Of a DNA stretch of 64,000 bases, positions 9,530 through 45,938 are shown piece by piece (positions within the stretch are counted from its first letter, which is position 1; every line of letters starts with the position of its first letter). The notes below the pieces were generated by a model. It saw nothing but the letters and a program-made list of their open reading frames with translations. It ran no database searches and had not been told where the DNA came from. This DNA comes from Unio delphinus (lineage: Eukaryota; Mollusca; Bivalvia; Unionida; Unionidae): NCBI GenBank assembly GCA_029339505.1, contig JAQISU010000097.1, positions 1,333,001 to 1,397,000 on the forward strand, given 5' to 3'. The translations under genes and the position numbers were made by a program.

Positions 9530-9806
9530 AAAAATCTATACTACCTCATTTCCATCAAAATCGGTACTACCTCATGGCCATCAAAATCTGTACTACCTCA
9601 TGACCATACAAATATGTACTAACTCATTTCCATCAAAATCTGTACTACCTCATGGCCATCAAAATCTGTACTACCTCATGACCATACAAATATGTACTAA
9701 CTCATTTCCATAAAGATCGTTATTACCTCATGGTCATCAAAATCGGTACTACCTCATGGCCATCAAAATCTGTACTTACCTCATGGCCATCAAAATCTGT
9801 ACTACC
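9530..9806. repeat. 26-bp satellite, left part of the array split by the Polinton-like element
   Basis: Degenerate copies of a 26-bp unit built on TACTACCTCATGGCCATC. The same array resumes at 24922, directly after the inserted element. This shows that a single array was the insertion target. Confidence 0.9.
9802..9806. other. Target site duplication, left (CTACC)
   Basis: Matches 24922-24926 exactly. It is 5 bp, against the 6 bp usually reported for Polintons. Confidence 0.85.
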
Positions 9807-10128
9807 AGCAGCAGAGGGGGTGAATCGGACAACCTTTTTCGGATATTTTTGATTATACCCTTAAAACGGCAAATAGAACCTTCCTGCGAAAACTCATTTT
9901 TTAACCAGAAAAAAAATAAGTCTCCATTTGACAAATAGACCCTTAGTGATTTTTGTCTGAAAACATGAGTTTTCGCAGGTGATACTTTATTCGCGTTTTC
10001 GTTGATTAATCATAAATGTCGCAATGATGTTGTGACTCACCCCCTCTGCTGCTAATGGTTTACGGTGAAAATCGTCCGATTTACCCTCTCTGCTGCTACT
10101 GTTTCAACCGAATATTTTATCAAGTCCT
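9807..10128 (+). repeat. Left terminal inverted repeat (322 bp)
   Basis: Matches the complement of 24600-24921 with no difference I could find by eye. It is internally folded. The terminal block AGCAGCAGAGGGGGTGA recurs inverted at about 10036-10051 and, with variants, at 10083-10098. CCTGCGAAAACTCA (9883) is answered by TGAGTTTTCGCAGG (9966-9979). The repeat could therefore form a long imperfect hairpin. Confidence 0.95.
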
Positions 10129-10142
10129 TAGGACGAAAATCA

Positions 10143-11498
10143 CTACGACTTTACAAACAGACTAATTTGTAAAACCTCCTCTTGTAAATCAATCAGATTA
10201 TTAGACTGGTCAGTGAGTTTGAAATTAATTCTGGTTAATGAATTATTATGACATCGCATATAGACTGGATTCACCGGGGACTCAATTATTAAAAATCCTG
10301 GAGGGGCTGTTGGTGCAAATGAATACAAAATATATCCTTGCTGAGCTTGATTTGATCGTTCTAAATTTATTTGATAGCTTCCTTCGATAACATCACACAC
10401 TAAATTGATCGCTATCACCGATGAAATATTCACATTGAACGGAGCAATATGCCTGCCGCCACCATCTGGGTCATTATTGTGTGTCAGGATAGTTGTTTGT
10501 GGTTGTGATGGTGTTTTTTTCCATTTGTCATGGATTTTTTGAAACCTTCATCGATGGTGTCACTGAGATGTTTTGTTAGTTGTGGTACGTTATATCCTGG
10601 TAGTTTGAATGTTGGAATATCTTCTATGCGGATCTTATAGTCTGTTGCAAATAAATCTCTTGTTTTAGGATTACTGTCACCTAATACCTCTTGAATGATT
10701 TGCGCATTAAATGTTTCCATGTCATTGATGATTTTGTTACATGTTTCTACAACGCTGATAAATTCATCTCGGGTGAGAGTGCCGGATCTAAGGGATATAA
10801 ACAACAACGAAATATCGCTATTCATCGCTCCGAAATTTACAGTGATGTCATCCGGTCGAAGATAGTGGTAGATCTTCTTAGTGGGAGGATCTACCAATTC
10901 AATAAAAAAAATACAATTTGTCATAATCGCTATAGCTTTTTACTGGATTGTCAGATTTTATCCTGTCGGTGATATAATCAGTTTTTTGTGGTTCTGGTAA
11001 TTTAACGGTTTTTTCCCGGGGTGGGATTTCAGGCCATCCTAGTACGGTCCTTATTGAGCTTTGATAGATATCTACGACATAACCCTCTGTGCTTATTTCA
11101 ATGGCAGATGATAGTGTCGGCTCATGAACTGTTATAGCTATTTTTGATTCTTTTCCAGTAATCGATTTTATTCTACGCGCGAATTCATTATTGATTTGTT
11201 CGATTTGGTATGACCCTGTTGGTATGGAAACGACGTTCCAGTCTGGGGTACCGTCGTCTTTATTCTTATTTGCAAATACCAGTGAATTATTCGGTTGTTG
11301 ACCACGAAATGATTTTGACCTAATATTTGGCCAGCTGTGATACACTCGTAATTTTGCTAGCGCGATTTCCTTCACTGGGACCGGAGAGGGGAAATTCACA
11401 CTGAATTCTGGATTCGTTGATGTTATTGAGATCATGCTGGTTTGTACTGGGTTTGTGTTCTCCACTATTTGTTGAAGTAATTCCATCTGTGTTGTCAT
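10143..11498 (-). pseudogene. Capsid-module protein of unknown function, one reading split over three frames
   Basis: Three consecutive minus-strand reading frames look like pieces of one gene. The first runs from ATG at 11498 to 10899, the second covers about 10924-10484, and the third is open from about 10540 to the stop at 10143. The switches coincide with an A8 run (plus strand 10904-10911) and a T7 run (10514-10520). In the related copy at 38202-39410 the first two parts are fused in one frame, which supports a single gene. The third part has a clear homologue at 52754-53060. It contains a cysteine and a PVYxxxHN..LxRIxFxLTDQ block. I recognise no catalytic domain. By position and conservation with the capsid genes it is probably a virion component. 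Confidence 0.6.
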
Positions 11499-11963
11499 TG
11501 TTATTATATTCATGATGTATTTCTAATTTTGACATCGCAGAATCATATATATCTACCATCGCTGAAAACTCACTCTCTGATATAATTGTATCATCGAGAG
11601 ATGACGATATCAATGAGGATAATTGCGAGCATGCAGTGGACACAACATGAAATTGAATTATGTAGTCTTGTAGTTTTCGTTGGCTGCATGATGATATTTT
11701 TTTGTGATTATTGAAATTATTCCCGCGATTGTTGTTGCCGCAGAAATGCAAATTGGAACAGCTATCGGGGCCATCATTGTCACTGAAGACAGTATAATAC
11801 CTGCTCCGGTGATTACACCACTCACTGAATACACGGTAACATCGATTGCGGTAATTCTCCTGCGATATTTTTTAATTTTCATTGCATACTCCTCAGACAG
11901 GGTTTTGAGTCTAGTTTGAAATTCTCTGACCTGATCATAGCGATATTGCGATGATGAAATCAT
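11320..11963 (-). CDS. Membrane-segment protein plus downstream overlapping frame
   Basis: The first frame (11963-11658, 101 aa) has a basic coiled N-terminus (residues 5-38) and then two hydrophobic segments (about 43-61 and 64-87), so it is probably membrane-interacting. A second frame (11751-11320, 143 aa) follows and overlaps it. Its conserved region starts just after a T7 run (11697-11703). The same two blocks occur in the same order at 37750-38329, where the frames are also offset. They may be one protein with a frame break, or two overlapping genes. The end of the second frame overlaps the start of the next gene (11498) in another frame. The function is unknown and a minor virion or membrane protein is an inference. 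Confidence 0.55.
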
Positions 11964-11976
11964 TTTTATTTTAAAT

Positions 11977-11986
11977 ACGCTAGCGT
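11977..11986. promoter_or_regulatory. Palindrome ACGCTAGCGT upstream of a late-type gene
   Basis: A perfect 10-bp palindrome lies 14 bp before the ATG at 11963, with an AT-rich TATA-like tract (ATTTAAAATA) between them. The same palindrome lies at 15329-15338, and a variant at 15803-15818. Confidence 0.4.
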
Positions 11987-12024
11987 TTTCAGTTGAAACC
12001 GTTAGTGAAATTGCTTTGCAATTT

Positions 12025-12852
12025 TCAATTTAAATCCGCTACGAATTCCACATACCATGTTGTTGAGACCCTAACCAAATTTTTATCAGTAAATGTGATT
12101 GTGAACTTTTCAGTTGTATTCTTGTCGATGATCGTTGAAATCGTATTATTGACCCCAGATGAACTGGACGATGAAATATTAAATTGAGTCAATGGTGTCA
12201 CTAGTGTTAATCGATAAATACCCTTGACGGTTGCAGTGATATCTAATTTGTTGTTTGTAGGTGTCCACGCAAATGATCCGTGTTGGATCGTGTATTCTAC
12301 GTTATTGGTTTTCTCATGAGGGATTTTTGTTTTTTCAATAATTGTTATCATCCTCGAAAAATCATTTTTGATGGCCTCGGTGAAGATTTTCGTCTCATCG
12401 ATGGATTTTTTAATATCAGGGAGTTTTAGTTCAATTTTATCGAATGTAGTTCCAATAAATTTATCAATGATATTTCTACGAAATGAGGTAAACTGTTTTA
12501 TGTGTTCTTCGGTTTTAGATTGAAGTGTTGCTAGTTCCAACGCAGAATCGTTGAGAGTTTTAAATCGATCTGCAATCGTCGAAAAAAGTACACCCGGTTT
12601 GAGTTTACCCTGATCGGAAAATAACGCGATAGTATCCTCGATTGCGTGTCGTTGTTTAACTAAAAATATCATCCAGAGAAATATTACTAGTTTTCAATTT
12701 ACCCTGTTTGTCCTGAAATACAACTATTTCATTCGGGTCAACACTTGTTAAATTTAACGTCTCAGCGATTTCATCTTTAATTTTTTTTTATATCACCGGT
12801 TGCAGTGTCATCGGGTTTGGGTTTCAGAAGTCTTCCCCAAATATCAATCATG
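12025..12852 (-). pseudogene. Fibre-like protein: stalk region and C-terminal beta-rich domain
   Basis: The reading starts at ATG 12852 (MIDIWGR, matching the start of the homologue at 36464). It changes frame at a T9 run (12781-12789) and again near 12675, then stays open for 215 codons to 12025. Residues of the long frame up to about 120 are charged, heptad-like helix (LATLQSKTEEHIKQF). The last 90 or so are beta-strand-like and Ser/Thr-rich (HGSFAWTPTNNKLDITATV). A helical stalk with a C-terminal knob suggests a trimeric attachment fibre; this is inference from architecture. The homologue in the second element has a much longer stalk. It lies just downstream of the protease gene. Confidence 0.5.
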
Positions 12853-12857
12853 ATATT

Positions 12858-13271
12858 TTATACACCTCTCTCTAAAAAGCGATTACTAGTGTATTCATTT
12901 ACGACAATATGAGGTGGTTTTCTAGATGCTGAAATAGCGTCAAGGACATTTAATACTTCACTGCCGCATATTGGTGGGTCATTGATTTGTTGTGTTGGTA
13001 GCGTAGAATACCAAGTCTTCATTGAAATTTTTTTTATATAACGCATAAATTCTTTTGGCGGGGCTAATCCATATGAATCAAAATAGACAATCCCACGTGG
13101 ATCAATAGCGTATGCAACCCAGTGAGTTCCGGGTCCGGTGCTGTTATCGAGATTAATGATACCTGTTTCAGTTTTGTTTGGTTGATGTGGTAATTGATCT
13201 TTCATAAAAACACCTCTGAAATTTTTAATCGCTAGTTTTTTAGCAGCATCCATTAAATCAAAATTGGACAT
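12858..13271 (-). CDS. Adenain-like cysteine protease (capsid maturation)
   Basis: 137 codons from ATG 13271 (MSNFDL). This start is chosen because the homologue at 36051 begins with the same MSNVDL. The adenovirus-protease family triad is visible: His50 in GPGTHWVAY, an acidic residue Asp65 in YFDSYG, and Cys102 in PPICGSEVL. Adenain-type enzymes cleave capsid and core precursor proteins during virion maturation, and this is a standard Polinton gene. The open frame extends upstream to 13373 through a 45-bp in-frame repeat, but that part is not conserved. The gene is intact and stands just downstream of the small hydrophobic capsid protein. Confidence 0.9.
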   Translation of the reverse strand: MSNFDLMDAAKKLAIKNFRGVFMKDQLPHQPNKTETGIINLDNSTGPGTHWVAYAIDPRGIVYFDSYGLAPPKEFMRYIKKISMKTWYSTLPTQQINDPPICGSEVLNVLDAISASRKPPHIVVNEYTSNRFLERGV

Positions 13272-13292
13272 AGATTCCTCAATTAATAAACC

Positions 13293-13427
13293 GTTCCTGG
13301 TAGTCTTAGACCCCTTCCGCTGTACCATGAATACGGGGTTCCTGGTAGTCTCAGGCCTTTTCCGCTGTACCATGAATACGGGGTTCCTGGTAGTCTTAGA
13401 CCCTTTCCCTTTTTTTATATCCTTGTC
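13293..13427. repeat. 45-bp tandem repeat between two capsid-module genes
   Basis: GTTCCTGGTAGTCT recurs at 13293, 13338 and 13383. The unit is 45 bp with about 2.7 copies, so it keeps frame. It covers the end of the gene at 13396-13791 and extends the frame upstream of the protease. Confidence 0.85.
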
Positions 13428-13791
13428 CAGTTGCCTTTTTCAACGCCATTCCTGCTGCAGTACCAACGGCTCCTAACGCCGCTGCTTTAGCCACTGCTGG
13501 GGCTGCTGCTGCAATCAATGCTGGTATTGCAGCTAACAATGGAAATATACCGCCTGTTTTAATCATATTTTTGATAGCAGCCGCAGAAAGAGTAATCTGA
13601 ACACCCTTTTTTGCTACAAGTGCATCATTGAAATGTTTTATTTGACGAGTTGTCAGCGATAATTTATTTGCACCTCCAGTCATTTGATTAGGTTTCAACG
13701 TGATTGTGGTTCCACATTTTTAAGCCGATTCTGATTGCAATTTTTTGATTTGACCAGAAGTTAACGCAACACTAATAACACTATATGACAT
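13396..13791 (-). pseudogene. Small hydrophobic capsid-associated protein with an in-frame stop
   Basis: The reading starts at ATG 13791 (MSYSVISVALT), meets an in-frame TAA at 13720-13722, then continues to 13396. The second element has the same start and order (35653-36064), so the conserved gene includes the part before the stop. Two similar blocks (L.LTxxQI...) are followed by an Ala-rich hydrophobic stretch (IPALIAAAAPAVAKAAALGA) and a basic tail. This suggests a small membrane- or DNA-associated virion protein. I cannot name the family. A start after the stop is also possible. Confidence 0.55.
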
Positions 13792-13847
13792 TATACATAA
13801 TAGATTGATTCTAAATCGTTTACAATTTCAATGAAAAATCGAGAAAA

Positions 13848-15269
13848 TCAAAGATTTTCCACTGGTGCATCTACCACTCTCATTCTTCCTCCAACACCTT
13901 CAAGTGGCATTGATTTATCACTAAGAATGACAGCAACCGCTCTATAATTAGCAATACCACCAGGACGGGTTACACGGGCTCTAAAGTGTATATCAACAAC
14001 AGATTGTCTCATCAAATCAAGATGTTCCAATGAAAAGTAATAAATCGGATAGAGGCTTTTGAAATCCAATTGTGATATTTGCAAACCAGTATCCACATTT
14101 AGATCACGTGCCATAAATGACAACAGGTTATGATAGACACGTGCAATATGGTTGTGAGTGTAATCGAGTTGTATATCCTCGGATGGTTCCTGTTGTCCGT
14201 TTATTCTCAGTGAGACCTCTCTAACACCTAACTGATCAAATATCATATGACTTCGTTGTTGATTACCAACTCGTGCATTATTCTGTAACGCCACAAATAT
14301 ATGACGTGGAGCTGAAACACCTTGTTTTGATGCCAGATGCCAAGTAAATATATCATCAACATTATCTAGTTTAATATCAGTGGTCACTGATAACCAACTC
14401 AACAATGATTTTCCTCCTTGGTCCATAAATGATAACAATTTTTCTTCTGCTGTGATTGATGGAGTTAACACTGGCATCCACAATGCTAGTTTTGTTAAAA
14501 TGACTTTACCATCAGCAACACCAGCATCATGCCATATTGCATCATTATCAGTACCCTTTCGTACAAGCGCTACTGTGTGTTTAGCTCCATAATTAACTTT
14601 TCGGACGTTTCTACAGAATCCAAAAATATGATGCAGTGGAATTGCACATGAAAACTGTCGACGCTGTCCATGCAACGTTGCTACACGTGTTGCAAACCCT
14701 AGGTTGTAGTTAGTAATATTATTTATGACATCAAAATCACCAGCTGGTCTTGTATATCCGGCTGGTGCTGGATTAACTGAAGAAGCATGTGTTGCCTTGA
14801 CTCTAGAATACTGGTTGTGTTCAGGGTGATCAGTAATATCCTTAGAAAACATCATAGATGGACCAACTGATCCTGTATAATCATCAGAATATCTCGCTAA
14901 CCCTATGATTGTTGTGGCCACATCAACATCACAATCAATGGATTCAATTTCTTTTCCATCAATGAGATATTTAGCGCTTTCAAATAACGCCATAATACCG
15001 TTATTAACAAAACCGACTTTGATAGTTGGGTTATTGTCATATGGAGGATCATTATGAGCAGCATCATTTGTTACAAGTTCTCCTTCTACTTCAATAAATG
15101 CTTCACACGGCAAAAAGTATTTACTGGTATCATGAACTTGAAGTTCAATTCGCGATCGGAGATCGGGTTGTATTGCATGATAAGAATAAAATTGAAAATC
15201 GCGTACAGAATCATTCTTGCCAACTGGGGCATCCATATCAAACGCTGGATCAGGTGACCTTTTGAACAT
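13848..15269 (-). CDS. Major capsid protein (double jelly-roll type)
   Basis: An intact 473-codon ORF, the largest in the left module. The length and mixed beta composition fit the double jelly-roll capsid proteins of Polintons and adintoviruses. The central block FSCAIPLHHIFGFCRNVRK (about residues 206-224) and the C-terminal block YPIYYFSL are strongly conserved in the decayed copy at 34017-35623. That conservation across two diverged elements indicates past purifying selection. The order minor protein, MCP, small hydrophobic protein, protease is conserved between the copies. The protein would build the icosahedral shell. Identification rests on family pattern and context, not on a structure comparison. 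Confidence 0.85.
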   Translation of the reverse strand: MFKRSPDPAFDMDAPVGKNDSVRDFQFYSYHAIQPDLRSRIELQVHDTSKYFLPCEAFIEVEGELVTNDAAHNDPPYDNNPTIKVGFVNNGIMALFESAKYLIDGKEIESIDCDVDVATTIIGLARYSDDYTGSVGPSMMFSKDITDHPEHNQYSRVKATHASSVNPAPAGYTRPAGDFDVINNITNYNLGFATRVATLHGQRRQFSCAIPLHHIFGFCRNVRKVNYGAKHTVALVRKGTDNDAIWHDAGVADGKVILTKLALWMPVLTPSITAEEKLLSFMDQGGKSLLSWLSVTTDIKLDNVDDIFTWHLASKQGVSAPRHIFVALQNNARVGNQQRSHMIFDQLGVREVSLRINGQQEPSEDIQLDYTHNHIARVYHNLLSFMARDLNVDTGLQISQLDFKSLYPIYYFSLEHLDLMRQSVVDIHFRARVTRPGGIANYRAVAVILSDKSMPLEGVGGRMRVVDAPVENL

Positions 15270-15328
15270 TTTATTCTATTTATCAGAGTCTAAATCGTGA
15301 AATCATAAAAAGATTTTCATCGTGAAAA

Positions 15329-15338
15329 ACGCTAGCGT
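15329..15338. promoter_or_regulatory. Palindrome ACGCTAGCGT between two capsid genes
   Basis: Identical to 11977-11986. It lies in the gap between the MCP start (15269) and the end of the minor-protein gene (15355), about 60 bp before the MCP ATG. Confidence 0.4.
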
Positions 15339-15354
15339 GAAAATCCGTAGGATT

Positions 15355-15795
15355 TCATCGACGTGGTTTTTTAAAGCCACTTCCCGCTATCATGTTTGCT
15401 ATCATGTTATTTTGGTCACTTGGAGTCACCAATGATGCTAGTTTTTCATCTACTGCGTTATTTATTATTTTACTAACACTTGCAGGCATTTCTGCTGTAG
15501 ATGGCAATGATACCGGTTTCTTTTTTCGTCTCACTAATGATGTTATTTTATTCTTCGCGGCTGAAAACGCTTTTCCGGTAAGATCTCCAACAGCACCAAT
15601 ACCCTTATCACGAATAACATCAATGGCTTTCATTGATAATTGTTTAGCTAACGGCATCACTTTTGGAGCCATTCTTGCAAATAACCCAGCAATGGTATTA
15701 CCTAAACCATCTCCGTAGTATGCTCTATAAACAGGCAATCGTGAATTAACTACATAGACGAGGGTTGGTTTATCATGATTGTAGTGTATGATCAT
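15355..15795 (-). CDS. Minor capsid protein, pVI/pX-like
   Basis: An intact 146-codon ORF. An N-terminal segment with NSRLPVYRAYYGDGLG precedes amphipathic helices (residues about 33-60), then a strongly basic stretch (VRRKKKP) and a C-terminal helix. Small basic proteins with an amphipathic helix next to the MCP gene are typical of the penton-underlying, membrane-lytic minor proteins of this virus group. The homologue at 33563-33991 keeps the motif VMNSRLPVYKMYHGDGL. The pVI-like role is inferred. Confidence 0.65.
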   Translation of the reverse strand: MIIHYNHDKPTLVYVVNSRLPVYRAYYGDGLGNTIAGLFARMAPKVMPLAKQLSMKAIDVIRDKGIGAVGDLTGKAFSAAKNKITSLVRRKKKPVSLPSTAEMPASVSKIINNAVDEKLASLVTPSDQNNMIANMIAGSGFKKPRR

Positions 15796-15802
15796 TATTA
15801 TA

Positions 15803-15818
15803 AAAACACTAGTGTTTT
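15803..15818. promoter_or_regulatory. Palindrome AACACTAGTGTT upstream of the minor-protein gene
   Basis: A variant of the ACGCTAGCGT palindrome, only a few bases upstream of the ATG at 15795 with a TATAATA tract between them. Confidence 0.4.
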
Positions 15819-15841
15819 CAATTGTTATTTATCTAATCAAT

Positions 15842-16781
15842 TCAGTCACTGTGATACCCATTTGCTAACTCGTCAATGATATCTCGATATGTTTTGATAT
15901 CCATGATACCACCTTGAAATAACCGTCTACAGATATCAGCTGCTTCATTAATTATTTCTGGTGAGTTATTTCCAGCTCGTTTTCCTCCGATGAGAACTTC
16001 TAACCGTGATATATCACTGACAATGTTACCAGGACAAGTAACGCTAGCGTTTCCAACTAGACGATTTTCCCGTGAAATTCCACTCCCCAGAAATTCCTAC
16101 TCATCGTATGGCTGTCTTAAATGGAGTTGAAATTTTCCCTTGAAGTCCCTGTATTCCTTCATCCTTCTATCTAAATTTCCAGTATTTATTTCATACACTA
16201 TATCAGCCCATTCATTATGTGACATTCTATAATTCGTATAATTGTCCTTGAAAAACTTCTCTTGTGAATCATAGCTGTTAGCAGCAAATTCACCTAAATT
16301 GTCTATATCCTCCTTGAGAATTCGTTTTTTAGCGCTATCGGTAAATATAATTGATATAGGTAGTTGTCCACTAACTAGTTCTTCCTGAAATCCTTCAAAT
16401 TTTTGTTCTGAAGCGGTTGATATATCCTGAGGAAGTGTTTTTAATGATTTTTTTTGTTTGTTTAGTTCTTTTTGCTATTTTTTCTAACACAGGGAGAAAA
16501 GTCTCTTCTTGTTTTTTTCCTTGTTCAGAGATTGTTGACACTATCTGTTTCGTTGTTGTAGTTATTGGTTTAAACAGCTCTTTAGATTCCTCAGCAAAGT
16601 CAGTCTGAAGACTCTGTCGTTGTTGCAGTTTATTTCTGACAGAGTCACGAATTGGTACAAATCTCTTAATTGCATCTAATCGTTCACGAGCCAATCGGGT
16701 CGTTAATGCTTCATTGACCATTATTTGAAATCGCAAACCATTTTTCAATTGCAAAACAATTTTCCCCATCGATGATTCCAC
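15842..16781 (-). pseudogene. Capsid-module protein with coiled N-terminus, broken
   Basis: The first frame (16781-16395) encodes a basic helical region with RLDAIKRFVPIRDSVRNKLQ. The second frame carries on from about 16450, after a T8 run (16448-16455), reaches an in-frame TAG at 16097-16099, and continues to TGA at 15842. The C-terminal block SRLEVLIGGKRAGNNSPEI is almost identical in the second element, and so is the N-terminal block. This shows one conserved protein of about 300 residues. The function is unknown. A palindrome ACGCTAGCGT (16041-16050) falls inside this reading. Confidence 0.6.
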
Positions 16782-16799
16782 CCTAATGGTCCAATATTT

Positions 16800-17720
16800 T
16801 ATTGCTGTGAAATATTTTTATTTTTATTGCTGTGAAATATTTTTATTTTTATTCACTGATTTCACTGATTTTTTGAAAGTTTTGGTGGTTTTTCACTGAT
16901 TTTTTGACAGTTTTGGTGGTTATTCTCAAAGAAATTTTACGGTCAAGTAGTCGATTTTGCATGGGATTTTCCGTAGAGAAAAGCTGTCAGGATTGATTTT
17001 CATCGATTTTGAGCCAATTTTTGATGATTTTCAGTCATTTTTGATGATTTTTAGTCATTTTTTGATGATTTTTATCAAAAAACCACGTAGGGTCAAGTAG
17101 TCGATTTTGCATGGGATTTTCCGTAAAGAAAAGCTGTTAGGATTGATTTTGATGGTTTTTCAGTTGAGTGGTCGATTTTCCGTAAAGACATGATTGTTGC
17201 AACAGAATCTAGTACCATTGAAATATTTTTACTACTGAAATAATTTTTGTTGTAGTGCCTCTGAAATATTTTTACTACTGAAATAATTTTATTTGTAGTG
17301 CCTCTGAAATATTTTTACTTTTTTGCCTGTTTATCACTGATTTTGTGTTATTTTTGTACCATTTTGTACCATTTTGATGGTTTTTTCAGTTGAGATTTTA
17401 CGGTCAAGTAGTCGATTTTGCATGGGATTTTCCGTAGAAAAAAGCTGTTAAGATTGATTTTCATCATTTTTTAGCTATTTTTCATCAATTTTTGCCTGTT
17501 TTCAGCGACTTTTGGTCATTTTTCATCGATTTTTATCAAAAAACCACGTAGGGTCAAGTAGTCGATTTTGCATGGGATTTTCCGTAGAGAAAAGCTGTTA
17601 GAATTTTATTCAGTGATTTTTTTATTTAGTGTGAAATAGTTTTTGATAATTTCAATCAAAAAGTGCTAAAAAAATATGAAAATCCCATTGAGATTTTACG
17701 GTCACAATCAAAAAATGATA
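16800..17720. repeat. Repeat-rich spacer between morphogenesis and replication modules
   Basis: A block containing GGTCAAGTAGTCGATTTTGC and CCGTAGAGAAAAGCTGT occurs four times (about 16940, 17091, 17402, 17552), with partial copies near 17168 and 17697. TTTTTGATGATTTT and CTGAAATATTTTTA runs lie between them. There is no ORF. It sits between convergent-neighbour genes of one transcription direction and could hold an origin, a promoter or a terminator. The role is inferred from position only. Confidence 0.7.
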
Positions 17721-17732
17721 AGGGTCGGGCAA

Positions 17733-18131
17733 TCAATTTTCTTGAATTAGTGCTCGTAGGTTTCTAATTTTAGAGTTGACTTCTTTTTTCAATTCGTATT
17801 CGTTACCTAATTCTTTTCGTATCCCCTCTACGATAGTATACAACGGGACGAACACACTGATGTCACTGGAAATTGAAAGAGAGTCTCTAATAGAATTCTG
17901 AATTCTTTTGATGAGTGCATATTTCTTTGGTAGCATATATTTATTGTTGTTAACTCCGTATTCTATATCCTGAAAATCAGACACAATTTGATCAGGATTT
18001 AATCCATCTGATAGTTTGATATCCTGATTTTTCAATTTTGCTATTTCAACTATGATGCTATTCATGTTTTCAGAATTCATTATTCTATAACATGACATAT
18101 CTCTAATTGAAAAATATGACGCATTAGACAT
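17733..18131 (-). CDS. Hypothetical protein downstream of the HNH endonuclease
   Basis: 132 codons from ATG 18131, which overlaps the stop of the preceding gene (ATGTCTAA), so translation may be coupled. The protein is mostly helical and charged, with no recognised domain. It has no counterpart in the second element, whose copy of this region is missing. Confidence 0.45.
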   Translation of the reverse strand: MSNASYFSIRDMSCYRIMNSENMNSIIVEIAKLKNQDIKLSDGLNPDQIVSDFQDIEYGVNNNKYMLPKKYALIKRIQNSIRDSLSISSDISVFVPLYTIVEGIRKELGNEYELKKEVNSKIRNLRALIQEN

Positions 18132-18611
18132 AACTAAATTGAACTTTTTGCCCGCTCTTTTTTGAAATAGCCGATCGATAAATCCCCTCTGCAACGAATC
18201 GTACTGAGGCTCTACAAATATCGAAAAAATTACCGGCCTCATATAATGATTGAAATATTTTCTCTTCGTTAGTTATTGTATTCAAAGATTTTACGGGTCT
18301 CGCTTTATTTGAACAAGTGCCAGTCTTCCCCCTTTTCAAATTCTCACTTTGTGTTATAGCTTGCAGATTTGATAAAGAATTGTTTTTCGGATTAGAATCC
18401 TTGTGATCGATAACAAAATCATCCTCGATCAATCCATTGAAACATTCACTATTCTGTGATTGAGATAAGTTTTCTTTCCAACAGTAAACCTGAAATACCC
18501 ATGAATACTCACAACACCAACTGGTTTGTTTAGTCTACGGTTTCTGACAGTACCATCACTGAATGCTTCATAATTTGTAATCAAGGGATGCTGTCTGAAT
18601 TCTTGGTTCAT
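18124..18611 (-). pseudogene. HNH endonuclease of the NUMOD4/HNH/NUMOD1 homing type, one frame break
   Basis: The first frame (18611-18429) has a NUMOD4-like YEAFSDGTVRN region and the start of the HNH motif (LNHRIV). The second frame (18432-18124) continues with VIDHKDSNPKNNSLSNL, the core His-Asn part of the HNH fold. It ends with a NUMOD1-like helix-turn-helix segment (residues about 55-100). The frame changes near 18430-18450 without an obvious homopolymer. Such proteins cut DNA and spread as selfish genes in viruses and introns. Here it lies as a free-standing gene next to the repeat spacer. It may be an invader of the element or a recruited nuclease. Confidence 0.7.
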
Positions 18612-18625
18612 TCGTATACATAATA

Positions 18626-18994
18626 CTATTGTTTGTCTAATTCATTGTTTGGTTCAATAATGAACCTTTCGATGTAGTCTTGAGGGGTTCTTATGATTTT
18701 GTCAAGGACGTTGTCAGCGTCAGGGTCAAAATTTCTGATTGATTGTCCATTTTTTATTCTTTTATCATAATAACGCTTCAATTCCCTGTATCGCTTACCA
18801 CCGCAATTTAGACATAATCGTGATTTTCCCCTGACCCCAACCCCACATCGAATACAGGGTAACGGACCAAGGCTTCCACGACGAAAGCTTTGCATATGAT
18901 ACCCACAGAACTCATTTCTGCATGATTTGTTACACGGGATTACTGATCCAATCATAAGCCATTTGCAGTGATTCATTATACATAAATCTTTCAT
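18626..18994 (-). CDS. Small Cys-rich zinc-binding protein
   Basis: 122 codons, intact. Cys10, Cys21, Cys25, Cys30 and His33 are followed by a CxxC pair at 47/50 and another at 61/64, then a basic helix. This looks like two zinc-binding modules and suggests a nucleic-acid-binding regulator. It is transcribed divergently from the polymerase run, with only 24 bp between the two ATGs (18994 and 19019). Confidence 0.6.
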   Translation of the reverse strand: MKDLCIMNHCKWLMIGSVIPCNKSCRNEFCGYHMQSFRRGSLGPLPCIRCGVGVRGKSRLCLNCGGKRYRELKRYYDKRIKNGQSIRNFDPDADNVLDKIIRTPQDYIERFIIEPNNELDKQ

Positions 18995-19018
18995 TTAAAT
19001 GCTTGTTTTAATTATAGT

Positions 19019-19544
19019 ATGGAGGAGTTCGAGAGATTATCGATAAATTAAGCCCTGGAAAAGTGTTCAATTCAATCTTGATAGAGTTTCTGATACACCA
19101 AAGAATAAAATTCTTGATAGAACCTTGATTAGTAAAATCAGAGACTTTTTTAATGAATTCAAGCGTGATGGGGCAGCTCATTGTTGGTCGACATTTCGAA
19201 TACAAGGCCGTGTTGACGCTACCATGAATGATGAAAAAGCAGCAGTGATAATCTCACGTCTTGGGGAAGAAAGAAATTTTTTTCGAATAAAATTCCTTAT
19301 CCGTGATAATGGAAAATGGATCATTAGGGATAAATTTGAACCCATTCTTAAGGACAAAAAAACTGTCACTGTGAATCAGGATTCAAAACCAGGAATTTTG
19401 ACTGGAATTGATAAACCATACTACGAAAGATCTTATCCTGTCACAGCAGTTGTTTACGGGATATATCCGCTCAATGACAAACCTGATATTGCAAAACTAG
19501 CACCCATGAAATATTCGACAGGGCTCAATTGTGTAGCAACATGA
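19019..19544 (+). pseudogene. N-terminal part of the polymerase-helicase gene
   Basis: An ATG at 19019 opens a short frame that stops near 19049. A second frame is open from about 19049 to TGA 19542-19544, and the same frame continues from 19548 into the polymerase ORF. The protein has no start codon of its own before TTG 19125, so this is best read as the N-terminus of the downstream gene with a frame break and a nonsense codon. No exonuclease motif of family B polymerases is visible. It could also be a separate small gene ending in the TGA. Confidence 0.5.
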
Positions 19545-19547
19545 ATA

Positions 19548-21581
19548 ATGGAACACTTCACAAATGCGTCCCGGGGAAATAAACTAACTGATCTAAGACG
19601 AAAAAAAATAACCGAATGGGAACTGACAGTGAAACAGCATGGGGCAACAATTCAGGATATAGCTAAATTAGAAACATCATTGAGATTTCCAATATCAGTA
19701 ACGACAATCACCGGTGAAGTATTATACGAATCGAAATATAAATCAAAAGGAGCCCCAATACAGATTATTGATCATAACGAACATGCGTGGTCATCTGCAG
19801 TAACAATATTTCCACGGGATAGAACCGTAAAATATCTGTTTGGAACAGAAGAGTTTTTTTCAGAGCAGAAATTATTTGATGCTATTTACCATTTGAGTAA
19901 AAACGATTCTGTGTCAGTGTGGCTATTTCATAGTACTTCAGACGAGGAATGTAGATTTGATCAGTTTGTAAGGCCCAACGGAGAATTATACCGTACTGAA
20001 GAGCTGCATAATCAAATGAAACAACTAGCTAGTGAGTTTTCTCCAGAGAACTCTCTGGAGGAAGACAACGATCAATTATTAGCAAACTGTTTTACACTAC
20101 CATCAATTGCAGCACATTTTGCTAGAAATAAAAACGCGTGGAAACCAACACGAAGTGAGTTTTTATCAGATGTCAGATTGTCCTGTCTTGAATACAGCCA
20201 TGGAGGGTTATGGAATACAAAATACGACCCTGATACCGTTATTTCAGTTGATATGATTGCGTGTTATCCAGGAAGTTTTCTTGGGTATGGAGAATGCGAG
20301 AAATATTTCAAACGATTTGGACACCCCACACACGAAATGACCCGTGTTGCTATTAATGGACCACTGCCTGATTTTGATTTAATCGGATTCGCTTGTGTAG
20401 TATCATTTGAAATGGCTACAGGACTTCATCCGTGTAGTTATCTTTGGATTGGTAAACACATGTCTGAAAAACACTGGATGCCAATAGTGTTATTACGGTA
20501 TATGCTTGATTGTACGATGTTAAAATCATTAATTGTCAGTGAAGCAATTATATCCTATCGAGCACAGAAATCAGTCTGGTTACCACAACCTGATCTAGAA
20601 AAAATAATTAGCGAAGAGCGAAAACTGTTTCCTGATTTTAATGAACAACAAATCATGAATTGGTCCAAACAGTTATTTGAAATCAGAAACAATGAAGCAA
20701 AAGATCTTGGACGAAGAATAATCGGTAAATTCACTCAGGGTGGCAAATACGACAATACGAGATATTCTTCACGATTGATTATAGACAATGCTGAATACGA
20801 TTTTGTAATCGCGGATTTAACGAATAAAGGCCTATATGTCAATCGTAAGGACGCATTTATGTCCGATGGAACCAAATTAGGTACAATTGTTACTTACAAT
20901 GATGGATACAATCCGCAGTACACACATTTGAGAGCTTCTATGCTTGGTTATGCTTCTATTAATCTGTTTTCAATGATTAATAAATTTCCTGACACCGCAG
21001 TTAGAGTTGCCACTGATTCATTTTACATAAATAGCAAAATGGCTGATTTTAAGGCTACTGGCAACGAGAATTGGGGGTCATGGAGAATTAAGAAAGAAAT
21101 GATTCATGATTATATTCAATCAGCAGATGTTACCATTGAAAATAATTATTTAAAAAGCAATCAGTGTTCAGAATTTTCTAATGCACCACCGATTTCTGAT
21201 CCAATATGCCGGTATAAAACAGTTTATTTAAACGGCTGTGGTGGGTCAGGAAAAACAACCCGGGCAATTGAGTTATTTCGTGTTTCCAATCCAAATATGA
21301 TTGTACTAACACCGACTCACAGACTTGCAAGAGAGATGATACAGAGAGGGGTAAATGCCTGCACTTATCACAGCTTTTTCCGATGGAAGGGAGATAAATG
21401 GACTCCTGAGCGTATGGGAGAGAAATTTATTCCTGAAATCATGATTTGGGATGAAATAGACACAGTGTCAGAAGATGTATTAAAAATATTTCTTGAGTGG
21501 TTGTTATTGAAAAATACAAAAATCGTCATGTGCGGGGATCACGGCCAACCACCACCATTTGTCGGTGCATCCCCCCCATGA
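19548..21581 (+). CDS. Hybrid protein: B-family-polymerase-like palm fused to SF1 helicase (first part)
   Basis: 677 codons. Polymerase signatures: motif A-like VDMIACYP (Asp235, Tyr240-Pro241), a central basic region LGRRIIGKF (388-395), and motif C-like VATDSFYI (Asp490). After a short linker comes a superfamily 1 helicase: Walker A GCGGSGKTT (563-571), Walker B IWDEID (633-638), and motif III CGDHGQPPP (662-670). The frame ends at a C7 run (21571-21577) and the helicase continues in the next ORF. Canonical Polintons carry a longer protein-primed polymerase with exonuclease motifs, and those motifs are not visible here. The protein would be the replication enzyme of the element. Whether the palm is catalytically active is not certain. 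Confidence 0.8.
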   Translation: MEHFTNASRGNKLTDLRRKKITEWELTVKQHGATIQDIAKLETSLRFPISVTTITGEVLYESKYKSKGAPIQIIDHNEHAWSSAVTIFPRDRTVKYLFGTEEFFSEQKLFDAIYHLSKNDSVSVWLFHSTSDEECRFDQFVRPNGELYRTEELHNQMKQLASEFSPENSLEEDNDQLLANCFTLPSIAAHFARNKNAWKPTRSEFLSDVRLSCLEYSHGGLWNTKYDPDTVISVDMIACYPGSFLGYGECEKYFKRFGHPTHEMTRVAINGPLPDFDLIGFACVVSFEMATGLHPCSYLWIGKHMSEKHWMPIVLLRYMLDCTMLKSLIVSEAIISYRAQKSVWLPQPDLEKIISEERKLFPDFNEQQIMNWSKQLFEIRNNEAKDLGRRIIGKFTQGGKYDNTRYSSRLIIDNAEYDFVIADLTNKGLYVNRKDAFMSDGTKLGTIVTYNDGYNPQYTHLRASMLGYASINLFSMINKFPDTAVRVATDSFYINSKMADFKATGNENWGSWRIKKEMIHDYIQSADVTIENNYLKSNQCSEFSNAPPISDPICRYKTVYLNGCGGSGKTTRAIELFRVSNPNMIVLTPTHRLAREMIQRGVNACTYHSFFRWKGDKWTPERMGEKFIPEIMIWDEIDTVSEDVLKIFLEWLLLKNTKIVMCGDHGQPPPFVGASPP

Positions 21582-22140
21582 ATGGCTAAAGGGTTTTGTA
21601 GACTATTATGAAGAAATTGATACCGATCATAGATCACTTGATGAAAAATTAAAAGAATTTAAGAAACTAATTAGATTACAACCGGATAGAATCCAGTGTG
21701 AAATAGCCCGTGAAATAATTTCGGAAACTCCAATGAATGAGTTTTGGGAAGCATGGAGACCAAACGATTTGATCATTGCAAGTAGAAAAATAGTCAGAGA
21801 CACACTTCAGATGAAATTATTTGAATTGCATAAACAAAAATTTGCAACACTTCCAGTGCCTCTTTGTTATAGGCCATCGGATACACGAAAACAGAACATT
21901 GAAGTTGATATTCCAGGCCTGACAGAGTCAGGAAGTGAAAAACAAATTCTGGTATTAAATGATGTTGTGCTGGTTGATATCAATGTCGTTGAAGATGCAT
22001 TGCGTGCTAATAAATCCCCATGGACGCTAGAATACGCAGCAACAATATACTCTTCACAGGGATTAACTATATCAGATACAATTGTTTGGATAGTAGATAA
22101 TCGCATAGAATGGTCGCAGTATCCAGAGTACGAAAAATAA
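21572..22140 (+). pseudogene. C-terminal half of the SF1 helicase
   Basis: Continues the helicase in the frame opened at 21559. Motif IV-like NDLIIASRK is at residues 69-77 of this ORF, and motif V/VI-like YAATIYSSQGLT (159-170) is the Gln-Gly segment typical of Pif1/RecD-type enzymes. The join to the previous ORF falls at the C7 run at 21571-21577. The frame ends at 22140 after an A5 run (22133-22137). Confidence 0.75.
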
Positions 22141-22476
22141 ATCAACTTCGAAGAATTGTCCTCGATGATGAAATCATTGGTGATGATAATGACACCACAA
22201 TAGATGATATTATTGATAAAAAAAAACTCTCCGGTTACAAACAACAGGACAAAAAAAAAACAACGAGAATTTGATATTGATGCTGAATTAATAATCACTT
22301 TGAAGAAACAACAGAATAATCACTGCGCAAGTTGCAATTGTATAATGCGTTGGCAGTATTCGGATAAGGATCCTCGCCAATTTACCGTTGACAGAAAAAA
22401 TAACAATCTCGGTCATGTCAGAAATAATGTGATGTTGACTTGTCTTGAGTGCAATAGACGCAAGGGTGCTAGTTAA
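22141..22476 (+). pseudogene. C-terminal HNH nuclease domain of the polymerase-helicase run
   Basis: After 22137 one frame stays open to an A10 run (22251-22260). The frame at 22204-22476 then carries a classic HNH domain: CASCNCIMRW, VDRKNNNLGHVRNNV, CLECNRRKG. The paired Cys-x2-Cys, the Asp-Arg, and the Asn-x-Gly-His and Asn positions are all present. This suggests one polypeptide of polymerase, helicase and HNH nuclease. A stand-alone HNH gene is possible. Its stop overlaps the end of the convergent integrase gene by 8 bp. Confidence 0.65.
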
Positions 22477-23414
22477 GACCATGCGGTGGCAATTTAGTAT
22501 CCTCGGGTATCACTTGTAATTGTTGTCTAGTAAAACCCCGCTGAGGGGCAGTTGAATCCAGTTTATAGACTGGAGGTCTACCCGTAGATCGTGTTATACT
22601 AGATATCTTGTGTGCAGTAACACTCCAAATAGGATCAGTAGCCCTTTTTCTGCCACCCTCAAGCTCTCCTGGTTCGTATAAATATCTCACAATGACATTA
22701 CTACCAAGAATTGGTTCTTTGAAATCTTTTTGTGGTTTTTCAGGTATTGACTTCATTTTAATCGCATTGATGGGTTTCATGTTGATGGTTCTAATAATCT
22801 CGTTATTCAGTGCAGTAATCACAGCTGGTAACCTTTTAACCCATTCACGGGATCTTTTTTCTTGGATGAATTCTTTTGCGTATTGATATCCAAATAACCG
22901 CTCAGCAAGGGTTTTATTAAACCGTTCAACAATTGCCTGATCACGATGCAGTGCAGTATGCCCCCGTCTGATAGTGACATTGTGATATTTCATTGTAGAT
23001 AACACTGCACCCTGAAATTCCTTGCCAGGATCAATTTGTAATAGATTTGGCCAGTGCAGAGGACCCCTTCGATAAATCTTTTCAAATGCAGAAGCTACTT
23101 CAGTGGCCGATTTTGTTTTTAACGGTTCTGCTTCTTTGTATCGACTTGCAATATCAACTACGGTTAATGCGTATTTGTAACCGTGGTCATGTGGCAGAAA
23201 TAATAGATCAGCCTGATGAACTTCATTAGGAAAGGTCACATCAAAATGCGAGACATTAATTTGTTTAGGCGGTGGTAAGTAAATTTGCCATAGTGCCTGT
23301 TTGGATAACCAATGAGCCGCAGTGGTTTTTTTTCACTTTTGCAGCGCTAGCGAGTTTATGGATTGCTGATTTACCCCTCCAGTATCCTCTTGGGGAATAA
23401 TAAATAGATTCCAT
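22469..23414 (-). pseudogene. DDE (retroviral-type) integrase
   Basis: The long frame (23239-22469, 256 aa) carries the rve catalytic core: Asp11 in HQADLLFL, Asp70 in LQIDPGKEF, and Glu105 in AIVERFNK. This is a D,D-35-E arrangement. The C-terminal part is basic and chromo/SH3-like in size. The N-terminus reads from ATG 23414 (MESIYYSPRGYW), in another frame up to an A8/T8 run at 23326-23333. Integrases of this kind insert Polintons with a short target duplication, as seen at the ends here. Apart from the frame break the gene is complete. Confidence 0.85.
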
Positions 23415-23421
23415 GTTGTTA

Positions 23422-23941
23422 TTAATTACCAGCACCTAACATCAATTTACTTTTCATAGCCGATTTTATCAAACATGAAGCCAATTGTTCTTTGAAGGAT
23501 TTATCAGGAATAGCATTTAACGCATGAATTAATTTCACATCAGCTAGATGCCTGTGTTGCAAATTGCTGCTTTTATAAGCGACATCATGAAGGTGACAGG
23601 CCTTATCAATGGCGTTTATTGGTCCTTCACCGGGGTTGGGTTGGTTATGATTATTGAGTCTGATATCTAATCGTGTTCCCGGGCCACAGTAGCTATATCC
23701 TGGAAGGTGCTTTTCTCCAGGGTATTTTGCCCATGGGGTTCCAGGGAGTTTTGCTAACTTGGCAGCGATATCACCTCCTCGTTTTTTTTAAAGGCTCTTT
23801 TGGTTTAGAAACAAATCTAAATTTCTTTGTACTACATTGTACGCATTTACCAGAAAGCGCTGATCGGTTATTTTTAGTTGTAATCGTCGTCAAGTCATCT
23901 GTGCCAGTACGCGCCCTACACTTCACACAATATAGATCCAT
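23422..23941 (-). pseudogene. Zinc-ribbon plus phospholipase A2-like virion protein
   Basis: ATG 23941. The N-terminal zinc ribbon has CVKC and CVQC pairs. The frame changes at a T8 run (23782-23789). Then follows a PLA2-like domain with calcium loop GYSYCGPGT and catalytic CHLHDVAY, ending at 23422. PLA2 domains of this parvovirus VP1-like type help virions breach endosomal membranes, and they occur in some Polinton/adintovirus genomes (family knowledge). The gene is divergent from the packaging ATPase gene, with 17 bp between the starts. Confidence 0.75.
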
Positions 23942-23958
23942 AATTTATATATAACGGC
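23942..23958. promoter_or_regulatory. Short divergent promoter region
   Basis: Only 17 bp separate the divergent ATGs, and they contain TTTATATATAA, a TATA-like tract usable in both directions. Confidence 0.4.
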
Positions 23959-24624
23959 ATGAATATAATTGATTATTCAGCTACCCGACGACGGGAACCT
24001 ATTAAACACCACGAAATGTTGCCGAATTCAATTAGAATGATTCTAATCGGACCATCTGGAAGCGGAAAGACACAACTGTTACTTAATTTGATAACGAGAT
24101 GGATGAAATGGAACAAATTGTATTTAATAGCCCCGAGTGTAGACGATCAGCGATGCTATGAAGTGCTAAAGGATTTTAACGAGAAAGCAAAAGAATTTCA
24201 AATCGATGATGATATTATTGAATTTATTACTGATATAGAGGAAGCCCCGAGCATTGATGCTATTGATGGAAGTATTAACAATTTAGTTGTGTATGACGAA
24301 ATCATGTTAGATAATCAAAAAAATCCTGCTAGAATATTTTCCCGAGGCAGGCATAAAAACACTGATGTGATATATGTCACTCAACGATACACTCAGATAC
24401 CAAAAGTGATCAGAGATAACTGCAATCTGCTGTGTGTATTCAACGGCGTTGATACTCATACGCTACGAAATATTCATCAGACCTGGTGCAGCGGTGATAT
24501 AAATCATAATCAGTTTAGAAATTTCTTTAGTCACGCTCAGTCAAAACCACACGGATTTGTGACAATAAATTTAGCAGACCCTAGGACACGATATCGTATA
24601 GGACTTGATAAAATATTCGGTTGA
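23959..24624 (+). CDS. A32-type genome-packaging ATPase (FtsK/HerA superfamily)
   Basis: 221 codons, intact. Walker A GPSGSGKT is at 31-38, Walker B LVVYDEIM at 109-116, and a following VIYVTQRY (138-145) matches the conserved Gln segment of this family. Packaging ATPases pump genomic DNA into preformed capsids and are hallmark genes of Polintons, adintoviruses and virophages. The last eight codons and the stop lie inside the right terminal inverted repeat (from 24600), so the left repeat carries a copy of this gene end. Confidence 0.9.
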   Translation: MNIIDYSATRRREPIKHHEMLPNSIRMILIGPSGSGKTQLLLNLITRWMKWNKLYLIAPSVDDQRCYEVLKDFNEKAKEFQIDDDIIEFITDIEEAPSIDAIDGSINNLVVYDEIMLDNQKNPARIFSRGRHKNTDVIYVTQRYTQIPKVIRDNCNLLCVFNGVDTHTLRNIHQTWCSGDINHNQFRNFFSHAQSKPHGFVTINLADPRTRYRIGLDKIFG

Positions 24625-24921
24625 AACAGTAGCAGCAGAGAGGGTAAATCGGACGATTTTCACCGTAAACCATTAGCAGCAGAGGGGGTGAGTCACAACA
24701 TCATTGCGACATTTATGATTAATCAACGAAAACGCGAATAAAGTATCACCTGCGAAAACTCATGTTTTCAGACAAAAATCACTAAGGGTCTATTTGTCAA
24801 ATGGAGACTTATTTTTTTTCTGGTTAAAAAATGAGTTTTCGCAGGAAGGTTCTATTTGCCGTTTTAAGGGTATAATCAAAAATATCCGAAAAAGGTTGTC
24901 CGATTCACCCCCTCTGCTGCT
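24600..24921 (-). repeat. Right terminal inverted repeat (322 bp)
   Basis: Reverse complement of 9807-10128. It ends ...CTCTGCTGCT at 24921 and is followed by the duplicated CTACC. Confidence 0.95.
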
Positions 24922-24926
24922 CTACC
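24922..24926. other. Target site duplication, right (CTACC)
   Basis: Matches 9802-9806. Confidence 0.85.
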
Positions 24927-32010: not shown

Positions 32011-32620
32011 AACTGTCGGTAAATTAGCTATTAACAGTTTTTGTTATTTTACTCAGACACCGACGTTCAATAAAATTTCTTCCATATTGTATCATTCCCT
32101 CAATCTCATGGACATGCCTGAGGGCACGTTATACGTAACTATTTGATATTAACCTAAACGAATTTGAGCTTGTCCCGGGAGTCGGGAAAAATTATTTGCA
32201 AATCTAGCAAATATGAATGATTCAATATTATAAAAGATCGTTTTATTTAATATGTGATAACTGCAAATATAGCACTAAAATCGTTGATAAATGCAAGTCA
32301 AATCGACTGGTGAAATAAAGTTTAAAGAATATCTTGTATATTTACAATTAAATAATTAAAACTCATGACACAGTAGACACAGTATTACTCATCATCAGAA
32401 TAAAACAGCAACAAAGTCCCAAAAATCTACTTGCGACGGAGAGAGCGATCCCTGCAAAAGGCGATAGAAGCCTTATTTTGCCAAAATAACAGTTTCATAA
32501 TAGAAGCCTTATTTTGCCGAAATAACGAGTAAAAAATAGCGGAGAGAGATCCCTATAATCGAGTGTGATCGTTACAAACGCGTTAACGTCAACACCGAAT
32601 TAATGTAACGCGATAAATAT
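32011..32620. other. No gene; short direct repeat
   Basis: TAGAAGCCTTATTTTGCC occurs twice (about 32467 and 32502) and GGAGAGAG twice nearby. This may be the remnant left flank of the second element. No terminal inverted repeat was found. Confidence 0.4.
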
Positions 32621-33542: not shown

Positions 33543-33562
33543 ATATATAACATCTAAATAAA

Positions 33563-33991
33563 ATGTATTGTAACAACCCAAGAAGAGTTTACGTAATGAA
33601 CTCGCGATTACCCGTGTATAAGATGTATCACGGAGATGGATTAGATAATATCATCTCAGGATTATTTACTAGAATCGCTCCAAAGATTATTCTTGTGGGT
33701 AAAGAACTAATTTCAAAAGCTATTGGTGCTATCAGTAGTAAAGTTATCGGGCAGATTGGTGATTTAGCCGGTAGCGCTTTTGATACCGTCAAAAACAAAC
33801 TCGTGTCATTGTTTAAAAAAAAACGAAAACCTGATATATAACCGTCCACGGAATTAATGCCACCTAAAATAAGTAAACAGGTGAATGAAATAGTGGCTCA
33901 AAAATTAGCTCCGTTGATAAATTCTGATGATGATTCCCAGGGAAATATTACCGCTAATTTAGTAGTTGGTTCTGGTCTTAGAAGATTATGA
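33563..33991 (+). pseudogene. Minor capsid protein homologue (pVI/pX-like)
   Basis: ATG 33563. The 92-codon frame stops at TAA 33839-33841, and the same frame then continues to 33991 with the conserved C-terminal block. The motif NSRLPVYKMYHGDGL and the helix ISGLFTRIAPK match 15355-15795. Confidence 0.8.
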
Positions 33992-34016
33992 TTTAAATCA
34001 GTTGATTAATAATAAA

Positions 34017-35623: not shown

Positions 35624-35652
35624 CAATTAGATGCTCTATTATTTAAATAAAA

Positions 35653-36457: not shown

Positions 36458-36463
36458 TATAAC

Positions 36464-37722: not shown

Positions 37723-37749
37723 CTTAATTGAAATCGTCGTAGTTTAATA

Positions 37750-44351: not shown

Positions 44352-45899
<1,548 letters not shown>

Positions 45900-45938
45900 G
45901 TCTGTTGTCGACCTGCCTGCTCTGAAGCCGCACTGGGA

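What the first reader, a model, noticed from the sequence alone, without database searches (positions are those of the whole stretch)
19019..22476. Polymerase palm, SF1 helicase and HNH nuclease in one reading replace the usual Polinton polymerase
Motif A-like and motif C-like residues precede Walker A/B and the helicase Gln-Gly motif, and a classic HNH domain follows in the same direction. No exonuclease motifs and no protein-priming region are visible. A three-part replication enzyme in an otherwise Polinton-type element would mark a distinct lineage.
Basis: partly seen in the sequence, partly recalled or inferred. Interest (0 to 1): 0.88.

Follow-up and report, generated by a model that had tools for sequence, protein, structure and literature searches.

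The report
Tlr1-like polymerase-helicase of a Polinton-type element

Summary
Window 19019-22476 encodes a polymerase-type palm, an SF1 (Pif1/RecD-like) helicase and an HNH domain, in that order. Here the gene is broken into pieces in three frames. Elsewhere in the same 2.5-Gb genome it is intact: 9 of 16 fetched copies read palm, helicase and HNH as one ORF, 6 of them from the start codon. Pfam, PHROGs and NCBIfam do not see the palm. Motif order and spacing, and a weak profile match to phage protein-primed PolBs, support it; motif C reads ATD. The gene sits in a 15,115-bp element (9807-24921) with perfect 322-bp terminal inverted repeats, a 5-bp target duplication, RVE integrase, A32-type ATPase, DJR capsid gene and adenain-like protease. 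This matches the published Tlr1-like helicase (pPolB-S1H): no exonuclease, ATD-type motif C, HNH or GIY-YIG at the end. So it is a new member of a known kind. Open: the host (probably animal), and why 18 of 20 related capsid loci show no replicase on the side read.

The parts
9802..9806 (.). left 5-bp target-site duplication CTACC
   Evidence: read directly; the flank is a 26-bp minisatellite
9807..10128 (+). left terminal inverted repeat, 322 bp
   Evidence: 100% complementary to 24600-24921; begins AGCAGC
12858..13373 (-). adenain-like cysteine protease
   Evidence: PF00770 E 0.0026, below the curated cut-off
13848..15269 (-). [quoted passage not shown]
   Evidence: PF21738 E 2.9e-16
18124..18611 (-). 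separate HNH_3 endonuclease gene, split into two ORFs here (18124-18432 and 18429-18611), one ORF of 173 codons stop to stop in several other copies
   Evidence: PF13392 E 2e-8; single ORF in L140, L141, L142, L144, L145, L146
19019..19544 (+). N-terminus of the replication protein: putative terminal-protein region and start of a vOTU-like region ending in ...LNCVAT; broken by a frame change near 19047 and a stop at 19542-19544
   Evidence: Cys invariant in 10 aligned natural copies; TP and vOTU assignment inferred by position
19545..21581 (+). rest of the vOTU-like region (DHNEHAW), PolB-type palm (motifs A, B, C) and helicase motifs I to III
21511..22140 (+). helicase middle part up to motif V (SSQGLT), in another frame
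   Evidence: Pif1-like PDB match of the intact family, E 4e-8
22101..22274 (+). helicase motif VI (AVSRVR) and linker, in a further piece
   Evidence: natural copies read on in one frame
22204..22476 (+). C-terminal HNH nuclease domain
   Evidence: PHROG 1035 E 2.8e-11; fused in frame in natural copies
22469..23332 (-). retrovirus-type (RVE) integrase, stop-to-stop frame
   Evidence: PF00665 E 1.9e-7, just below the curated cut-off; 316 aa ORF in L147
23959..24624 (+). A32-type packaging ATPase
   Evidence: PF04665 E 3.1e-15
24600..24921 (-). right terminal inverted repeat, 322 bp
   Evidence: ends GCTGCT
24922..24926 (.). right 5-bp target-site duplication CTACC

Best explanation
The run is the replication gene of an integrated Polinton-type element. 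Intact copies encode one protein of about 1,150-1,170 aa (about 1,300 in one subfamily): a putative TP region, a vOTU-like region, a protein-primed PolB palm without exonuclease, a Pif1-like SF1 helicase, and HNH. This is a Tlr1-like helicase (pPolB-S1H). Most likely mechanism: the N-terminal TP region offers a hydroxyl on which the palm starts copying at the inverted-repeat ends; the vOTU frees the TP from the polymerase; the palm copies by strand displacement with the fused helicase unwinding ahead; the integrase inserts the linear product with a 5-bp duplication. The HNH domain is most likely a homing-type nuclease that became fused. Shown here: domain order, motifs, in-frame fusion, purifying selection, TIRs, target duplication, gene set. 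Inferred: TP and vOTU identity, polymerase and helicase activity, every step of the cycle. The window copy itself is broken. The stated confidence is for the identity (Tlr1-like pPolB-S1H); the first rival below concerns activity only and is nested in it.
For: In-frame fusion: 9 of 16 fetched loci read palm, helicase and HNH in one ORF, 6 of them from the start codon; 8 of the 16 were picked by me for long frames. Palm: motif triplet in 2 of 200,000 shuffles; profile-profile match to 13 phage protein-primed PolBs at motif C and the following 'GxW' stretch, score 28.6 against a shuffle mean of 14.6 (0 of 150 shuffles reach it), while the N-terminal and helicase segments do not match. Helicase: AAA_19 E 7.6e-11, Pif1-like PDB chains E 4e-8 with both halves aligned. 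Selection: omega 0.19 palm, 0.13 helicase, 0.22 HNH between L153 and L150; 0.25-0.28 against the 69-70% identical relative L167. ATD motif C, no exonuclease and C-terminal HNH as published for Tlr1-like helicases. TIRs, target duplication, integrase, ATPase, MCP, protease.
Against: No profile library sees the palm; the only structure model was worthless (pLDDT 31.4); the intact family's profile found no polymerase in the PDB. The HHalign probability of the PolB match is itself low: 7.9%, E 0.0043, and 2.0% without L167, score 23.3, reached by 2 of 200 shuffles, best shuffle 28.0; the whole protein gave 0.6%. Motifs A and B lie outside that alignment. 8 of 13 phage PolBs fail the motif pattern. 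In L167 motif C reads AID. No published Tlr1-like sequence could be compared; none was found in the collections scanned. The vOTU call rests on a few invariant residues.
Confidence: 0.86

Rival explanations
1. The palm is catalytically dead: the protein works as a helicase-nuclease and a host or other polymerase copies the element. (Nested within the best explanation's identity.)
For: Motif C lacks its first Asp in the copies examined and reads AID in L167. A 2016 paper title, seen only in reference lists, speaks of an 'inactivated DNA polymerase'.
Against: Motifs A and B are invariant in the 10 aligned copies and palm omega is 0.15-0.20 between subfamilies. The 2024 preprint notes that the same Asp is missing in polymerases that are active, such as those of mavirus and pipolins.
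Confidence: 0.2
2. The fusion is a chance run of neighbouring genes or an assembly artefact.
For: In the window the pieces lie in three frames.
Against: 9 of 16 loci, each on its own contig, read palm, helicase and HNH in one ORF, with whole-protein omega of 0.17-0.41 over the nine pairs compared, where defined.
Confidence: 0.02
3. An ordinary Polinton pPolB plus a separate helicase.
For: The rest of the element is Polinton-like.
Against: About 156 residues between DHNxH and motif A leave little room for an exonuclease domain, no exonuclease profile hit was found, and the helicase is fused.
Confidence: 0.04

Closest known systems
Tlr1-like helicase (pPolB-S1H) of the Tetrahymena Tlr1 element, polinton-like viruses and transpovirons
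   Same: palm without exonuclease, ATD-type motif C, C-terminal SF1 helicase, C-terminal homing nuclease; Tlr1 also has an RVE integrase (PMC11071308: passages, section 10)
   Different: Tlr1 itself carries GIY-YIG where this has HNH; the genome here is large and looks animal-like rather than a protist's; no direct sequence comparison was possible
Polinton/Maverick and adintovirus elements
   Same: TIRs, RVE integrase, A32-type ATPase, adenain-like protease, DJR capsid protein
   Different: as described in PMC11071308 (passages) their pPolB has an exonuclease and no fused SF1 helicase; target duplication is 5 bp here, against 6 bp recalled for Polintons
OmPLV SF1-pPolB fusion of Oxyrrhis marina (PMC12721341, abstract and passages read)
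   Same: SF1 helicase and pPolB in one protein
   Different: OmPLV has the helicase at the N-terminus and a complete exonuclease; the order is reversed
Cryptophyte and Symbiodinium PLV helicase-HNH proteins (PMC12220804, passages read)
   Same: helicase fused to HNH, in one cluster next to an RVE integrase gene
   Different: there the HNH is N-terminal to the helicase; here it is C-terminal

Membership tests
Tlr1-like helicase (pPolB-S1H) | PolB palm with motifs A and B | tested here: met
   motif level plus a weak profile match (HHalign probability 7.9%), no structure
Tlr1-like helicase (pPolB-S1H) | motif C without the first Asp | tested here: met
   ATDS in the window and the 8 long-ORF copies scanned; AID in L167
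Tlr1-like helicase (pPolB-S1H) | no exonuclease domain before the palm | tested here: met
   by spacing and absence of hits only: about 156 residues between DHNxH and motif A, no exonuclease profile hit
Tlr1-like helicase (pPolB-S1H) | TPR1 and TPR2 subdomains | not testable with these tools
   structure model failed; motif spacings A-B 150 and B-C 103 leave room for both
Tlr1-like helicase (pPolB-S1H) | vOTU with Cys and His before the palm | tested here: inconclusive
   invariant Cys171 and DHNxHxW in 10 aligned copies; no profile or structure support
Tlr1-like helicase (pPolB-S1H) | terminal-protein domain at the N-terminus | not testable with these tools
   about 170 residues precede the Cys; no profile hit; fold unknown
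Tlr1-like helicase (pPolB-S1H) | C-terminal SF1 helicase in the same protein | tested here: met
Tlr1-like helicase (pPolB-S1H) | palm and helicase group with Tlr1, PLV and transpoviron proteins in a tree | not tested
   no reference sequences could be fetched
Polinton/Maverick | terminal inverted repeats | tested here: met
   322 bp, 100%
Polinton/Maverick | RVE integrase, A32 ATPase, protease, DJR MCP | tested here: met
   integrase and protease below curated cut-offs
Polinton/Maverick | pPolB with exonuclease | tested here: not met
   a palm-helicase-HNH protein instead; no other polymerase was recognised in the element's ORFs scanned
Polinton/Maverick | 6-bp target duplication (recalled) | tested here: not met
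   5 bp CTACC in this one insertion, which lies in a minisatellite

The most novel reading that the evidence does not exclude
A pPolB-S1H-HNH lineage, described in the papers read here from protist-associated elements and transpovirons, has multiplied inside an animal genome. A few replicase-bearing elements may serve a much larger crowd of capsid-bearing relatives that carry no replicase of their own, so that copying would happen in trans.
Probability: 0.2. Interest if true: 0.65.

Novelty: new member of a known kind. Interest (0 to 1): 0.42.

Why it matters
It gives a well-delimited 15.1-kb element with perfect ends and several natural intact copies of the Tlr1-type replicase, including near-identical and about 30%-diverged relatives in one genome. 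If the host is an animal, it extends this replicase type beyond the protist and giant-virus world of the papers read here, and it offers alignments that could help settle whether the ATD palm is alive.

Tried and rejected
Chance neighbouring ORFs: rejected by intact copies. Single-sequence AlphaFold of the palm: useless (pLDDT 31.4), so no fold search was run. Pfam, PHROGs and NCBIfam on the palm: nothing. IMG/VR: eight scans brought no relative of replicase, ATPase or MCP. The five stretches were not replicases. GTDB genomes: none. Phage records: 66 records matched the 677-aa ORF, and the 15 listed all match its helicase part. The host test with the Wnt family PF00110 could not be run, so the host stays unproven. 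Papers PMC5499653 and PMC11161782 are not held and were not read; PMC5499653's title was seen in reference lists only.
Full report
WHAT IS THERE. The window holds the ORFs named in the finding: 19548-21581 (677 aa) and 22204-22476 (90 aa), with an ATG at 19019. Reading stop to stop shows that the run is broken here: 19019-19048, 19047-19544, 19545-21581, 21511-22140, 22101-22274 and 22204-22476 lie in three frames. I searched the pieces apart and mended nothing. Whether each break is decay or assembly error I cannot tell.

THE ELEMENT. Perfect inverted repeats of 322 bp lie at 9807-10128 and 24600-24921, so the element is 15,115 bp. It starts AGCAGC, ends GCTGCT, and is flanked by CTACC on both sides. 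It sits in a 26-bp minisatellite, of which 66 matches with up to two mismatches were found in the window. Inside are a DJR capsid protein (PF21738, E 2.9e-16), an A32-type ATPase (PF04665, E 3.1e-15), an RVE integrase (PF00665, E 1.9e-7, just under its cut-off), and an adenain-like protease (PF00770, E 0.0026, under its cut-off). A second, decayed relative of the structural genes lies at 32.6-39.4 kb on the other strand, with its MCP about 52-60% identical over the long stretches; tblastn found no second replicase in the window.

ONE PROTEIN IN NATURAL COPIES. In 24 of the 66 rows an open frame of at least 1,150 aa is listed with no stop inside (my count); a long frame does not prove that the HNH is in it (L152 is a counter-example). 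Of 16 fetched loci that cover the gene (L139-L146, the best rows; L147-L154, picked by me for long frames; L155 left out as it holds only the matched part), 9 read palm, helicase and HNH in one ORF: L143, L146, L147, L148, L149, L150, L151, L153 and L154. Six of these (L147, L148, L149, L150, L153, L154) run from a start codon at the family's N-terminus to the HNH end; L151 begins inside the N-terminus of its subfamily, and L143 and L146 have a broken N-terminus. The other 7, window copy included, are interrupted somewhere; in L140 and L141 the N-terminus to the helicase is one ORF and only the HNH is out of frame. L150, L151 and L152 have a longer, different N-terminus.

IS IT A POLYMERASE PALM? 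No library recognises it: Pfam, PHROGs and NCBIfam give nothing for the segment, and a profile of ten copies finds helicases and chance matches, no polymerase, in the PDB. The motif triplet D..A.YPG - K.......GKF - ATDS, with pPolB-like spacing, occurs in 2 of 200,000 shuffles and 0 of 525 decoy ORFs; 5 of 13 phage protein-primed PolBs pass the same pattern and 8 do not; I wrote the pattern after seeing the window. A profile of the 8 long-frame copies against the 13 phage PolBs: whole protein, HHalign probability 0.6%, aligned at motif C; palm only, score 23.3, probability 2.0%, reached by 2 of 200 shuffles, best shuffle 28.0. With the diverged relative L167 added the score rose to 28.6 (probability 7.9%, E 0.0043), reached by 0 of 150 shuffles (mean 14.6, sd 2.2, best 21.6), aligning motif C and the 'GxW' stretch after it; the N-terminal and helicase segments did not match (31 of 40 and 37 of 40 shuffles reached their scores). 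Motifs A and B lie outside that alignment. I take the palm as supported, not proven.

PRIMING REGION. In ten aligned copies Cys171 and D251-H252-N253-x-H255-x-W257 are invariant, upstream of motif A at 411. L167 keeps DHNDHAW. Position and residues fit the vOTU published for Tlr1-like helicases, with a terminal-protein-like domain in front; this is inference, with no fold or profile behind it.

HELICASE AND HNH. A natural copy (L153) gives AAA_19 E 7.6e-11 and AAA_30 E 3.7e-9; the family profile gives Pif1-like PDB chains at E 4e-8, with both halves aligned. The HNH piece matches PHROG endonuclease families, best E 2.8e-11; Pfam HNH E 0.0054, under its cut-off; no useful PDB match.

SELECTION. 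Between L153 and L150 omega is 0.36 (N-terminus plus vOTU), 0.19 (palm), 0.13 (helicase) and 0.22 (HNH, six changes only); whole protein 0.22. The N-terminus is looser in other pairs too (0.43 for L140/L150, 0.45 for L153/L148). HNH comparisons with L140 are out of frame and meaningless, and the close pair L150/L151 gives 0.41 for the whole protein on 26 changes. Against L167, 69-70% identical, omega is 0.25 and 0.28 at dS 0.8 and 0.7. L140 and L141 are identical over the gene, which may be a recent copy or a duplicated haplotig.

RELATED CAPSID LOCI. A 137-aa MCP piece of the decayed element has 150 scored matches, 58-100% identical. I took stretches of about 9 kb on one side, upstream, of 20 of them. 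L167 holds a broken, diverged replicase with integrase and ATPase; L174 holds integrase, ATPase and a replicase fragment; the other 18 show no match to replicase (tblastn E 1e-3), integrase or ATPase (E 1e-4) there, though one (L171) holds parts of a second structural module.

WHAT IS KNOWN. The 2024 preprint by Krupovic and others (PMC11071308; section 10 read whole, passages) describes Tlr1-like helicases as palm without exonuclease, motif C lacking the first Asp, SF1 helicase, vOTU and variable TP-like domains in front, and C-terminal GIY-YIG or HNH. PMC12721341 (abstract and passages) describes the reversed fusion in Oxyrrhis. PMC12220804 (passages) reports HNH fused N-terminally to helicases. 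Passages only were also seen of PMC11071296, PMC4642659, PMC10328495 and PMC3671162. In the passages of PMC11071308 found with 'animal', 'invertebrate' and 'metazoa' I saw no animal host named for a Tlr1-like helicase; that is no proof of absence, and a tree legend in PMC3671162 lists Hydra among its taxa. Paper searches.

HOST. Unproven. The size of the genome, a non-LTR retrotransposon at 44-48 kb and a 12-finger C2H2 gene near one capsid copy (L181) suggest an animal; the direct test could not be run.

VERDICT. The enzyme is best read as a new member of the Tlr1-like pPolB-S1H kind with a C-terminal HNH, in a Polinton-type element. The claim of a distinct lineage marked by this enzyme is not supported, nor is the claim that no priming region exists.

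Noticed in passing
window 32615-39410 (+): A second, decayed Polinton-type structural module (MCP, protease and small genes), about 40-63% identical to the first gene by gene over the longer stretches, with no replicase seen in the window.
   Followed up: partly
L164-L183: 18 of 20 loci upstream of related capsid genes show no match to replicase, integrase or ATPase within about 9 kb on the side read; they may be defective, trans-dependent or arranged differently.
   Followed up: partly
window 18124-18611 (-): A second, separate HNH_3 endonuclease gene beside the replicase, one ORF in several other copies.
   Followed up: partly
window 9807-24921: The inverted repeats are perfect although the replicase is broken in several places; the copy may have been moved by another copy's enzyme, or some breaks may be assembly errors.
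   Followed up: no
window 54410-60513: A long tandem array with open frames on both strands and a nine-residue peptide unit (IHPDIADIG-like; 27 bp by eye).
   Followed up: no
window 44352-47675 (-): A non-LTR retrotransposon split over three ORFs, with endonuclease and reverse transcriptase domains and higher G+C than its surroundings.
   Followed up: partly
L150, L151, L152: A subfamily of the replicase with a longer and different N-terminus.
   Followed up: no
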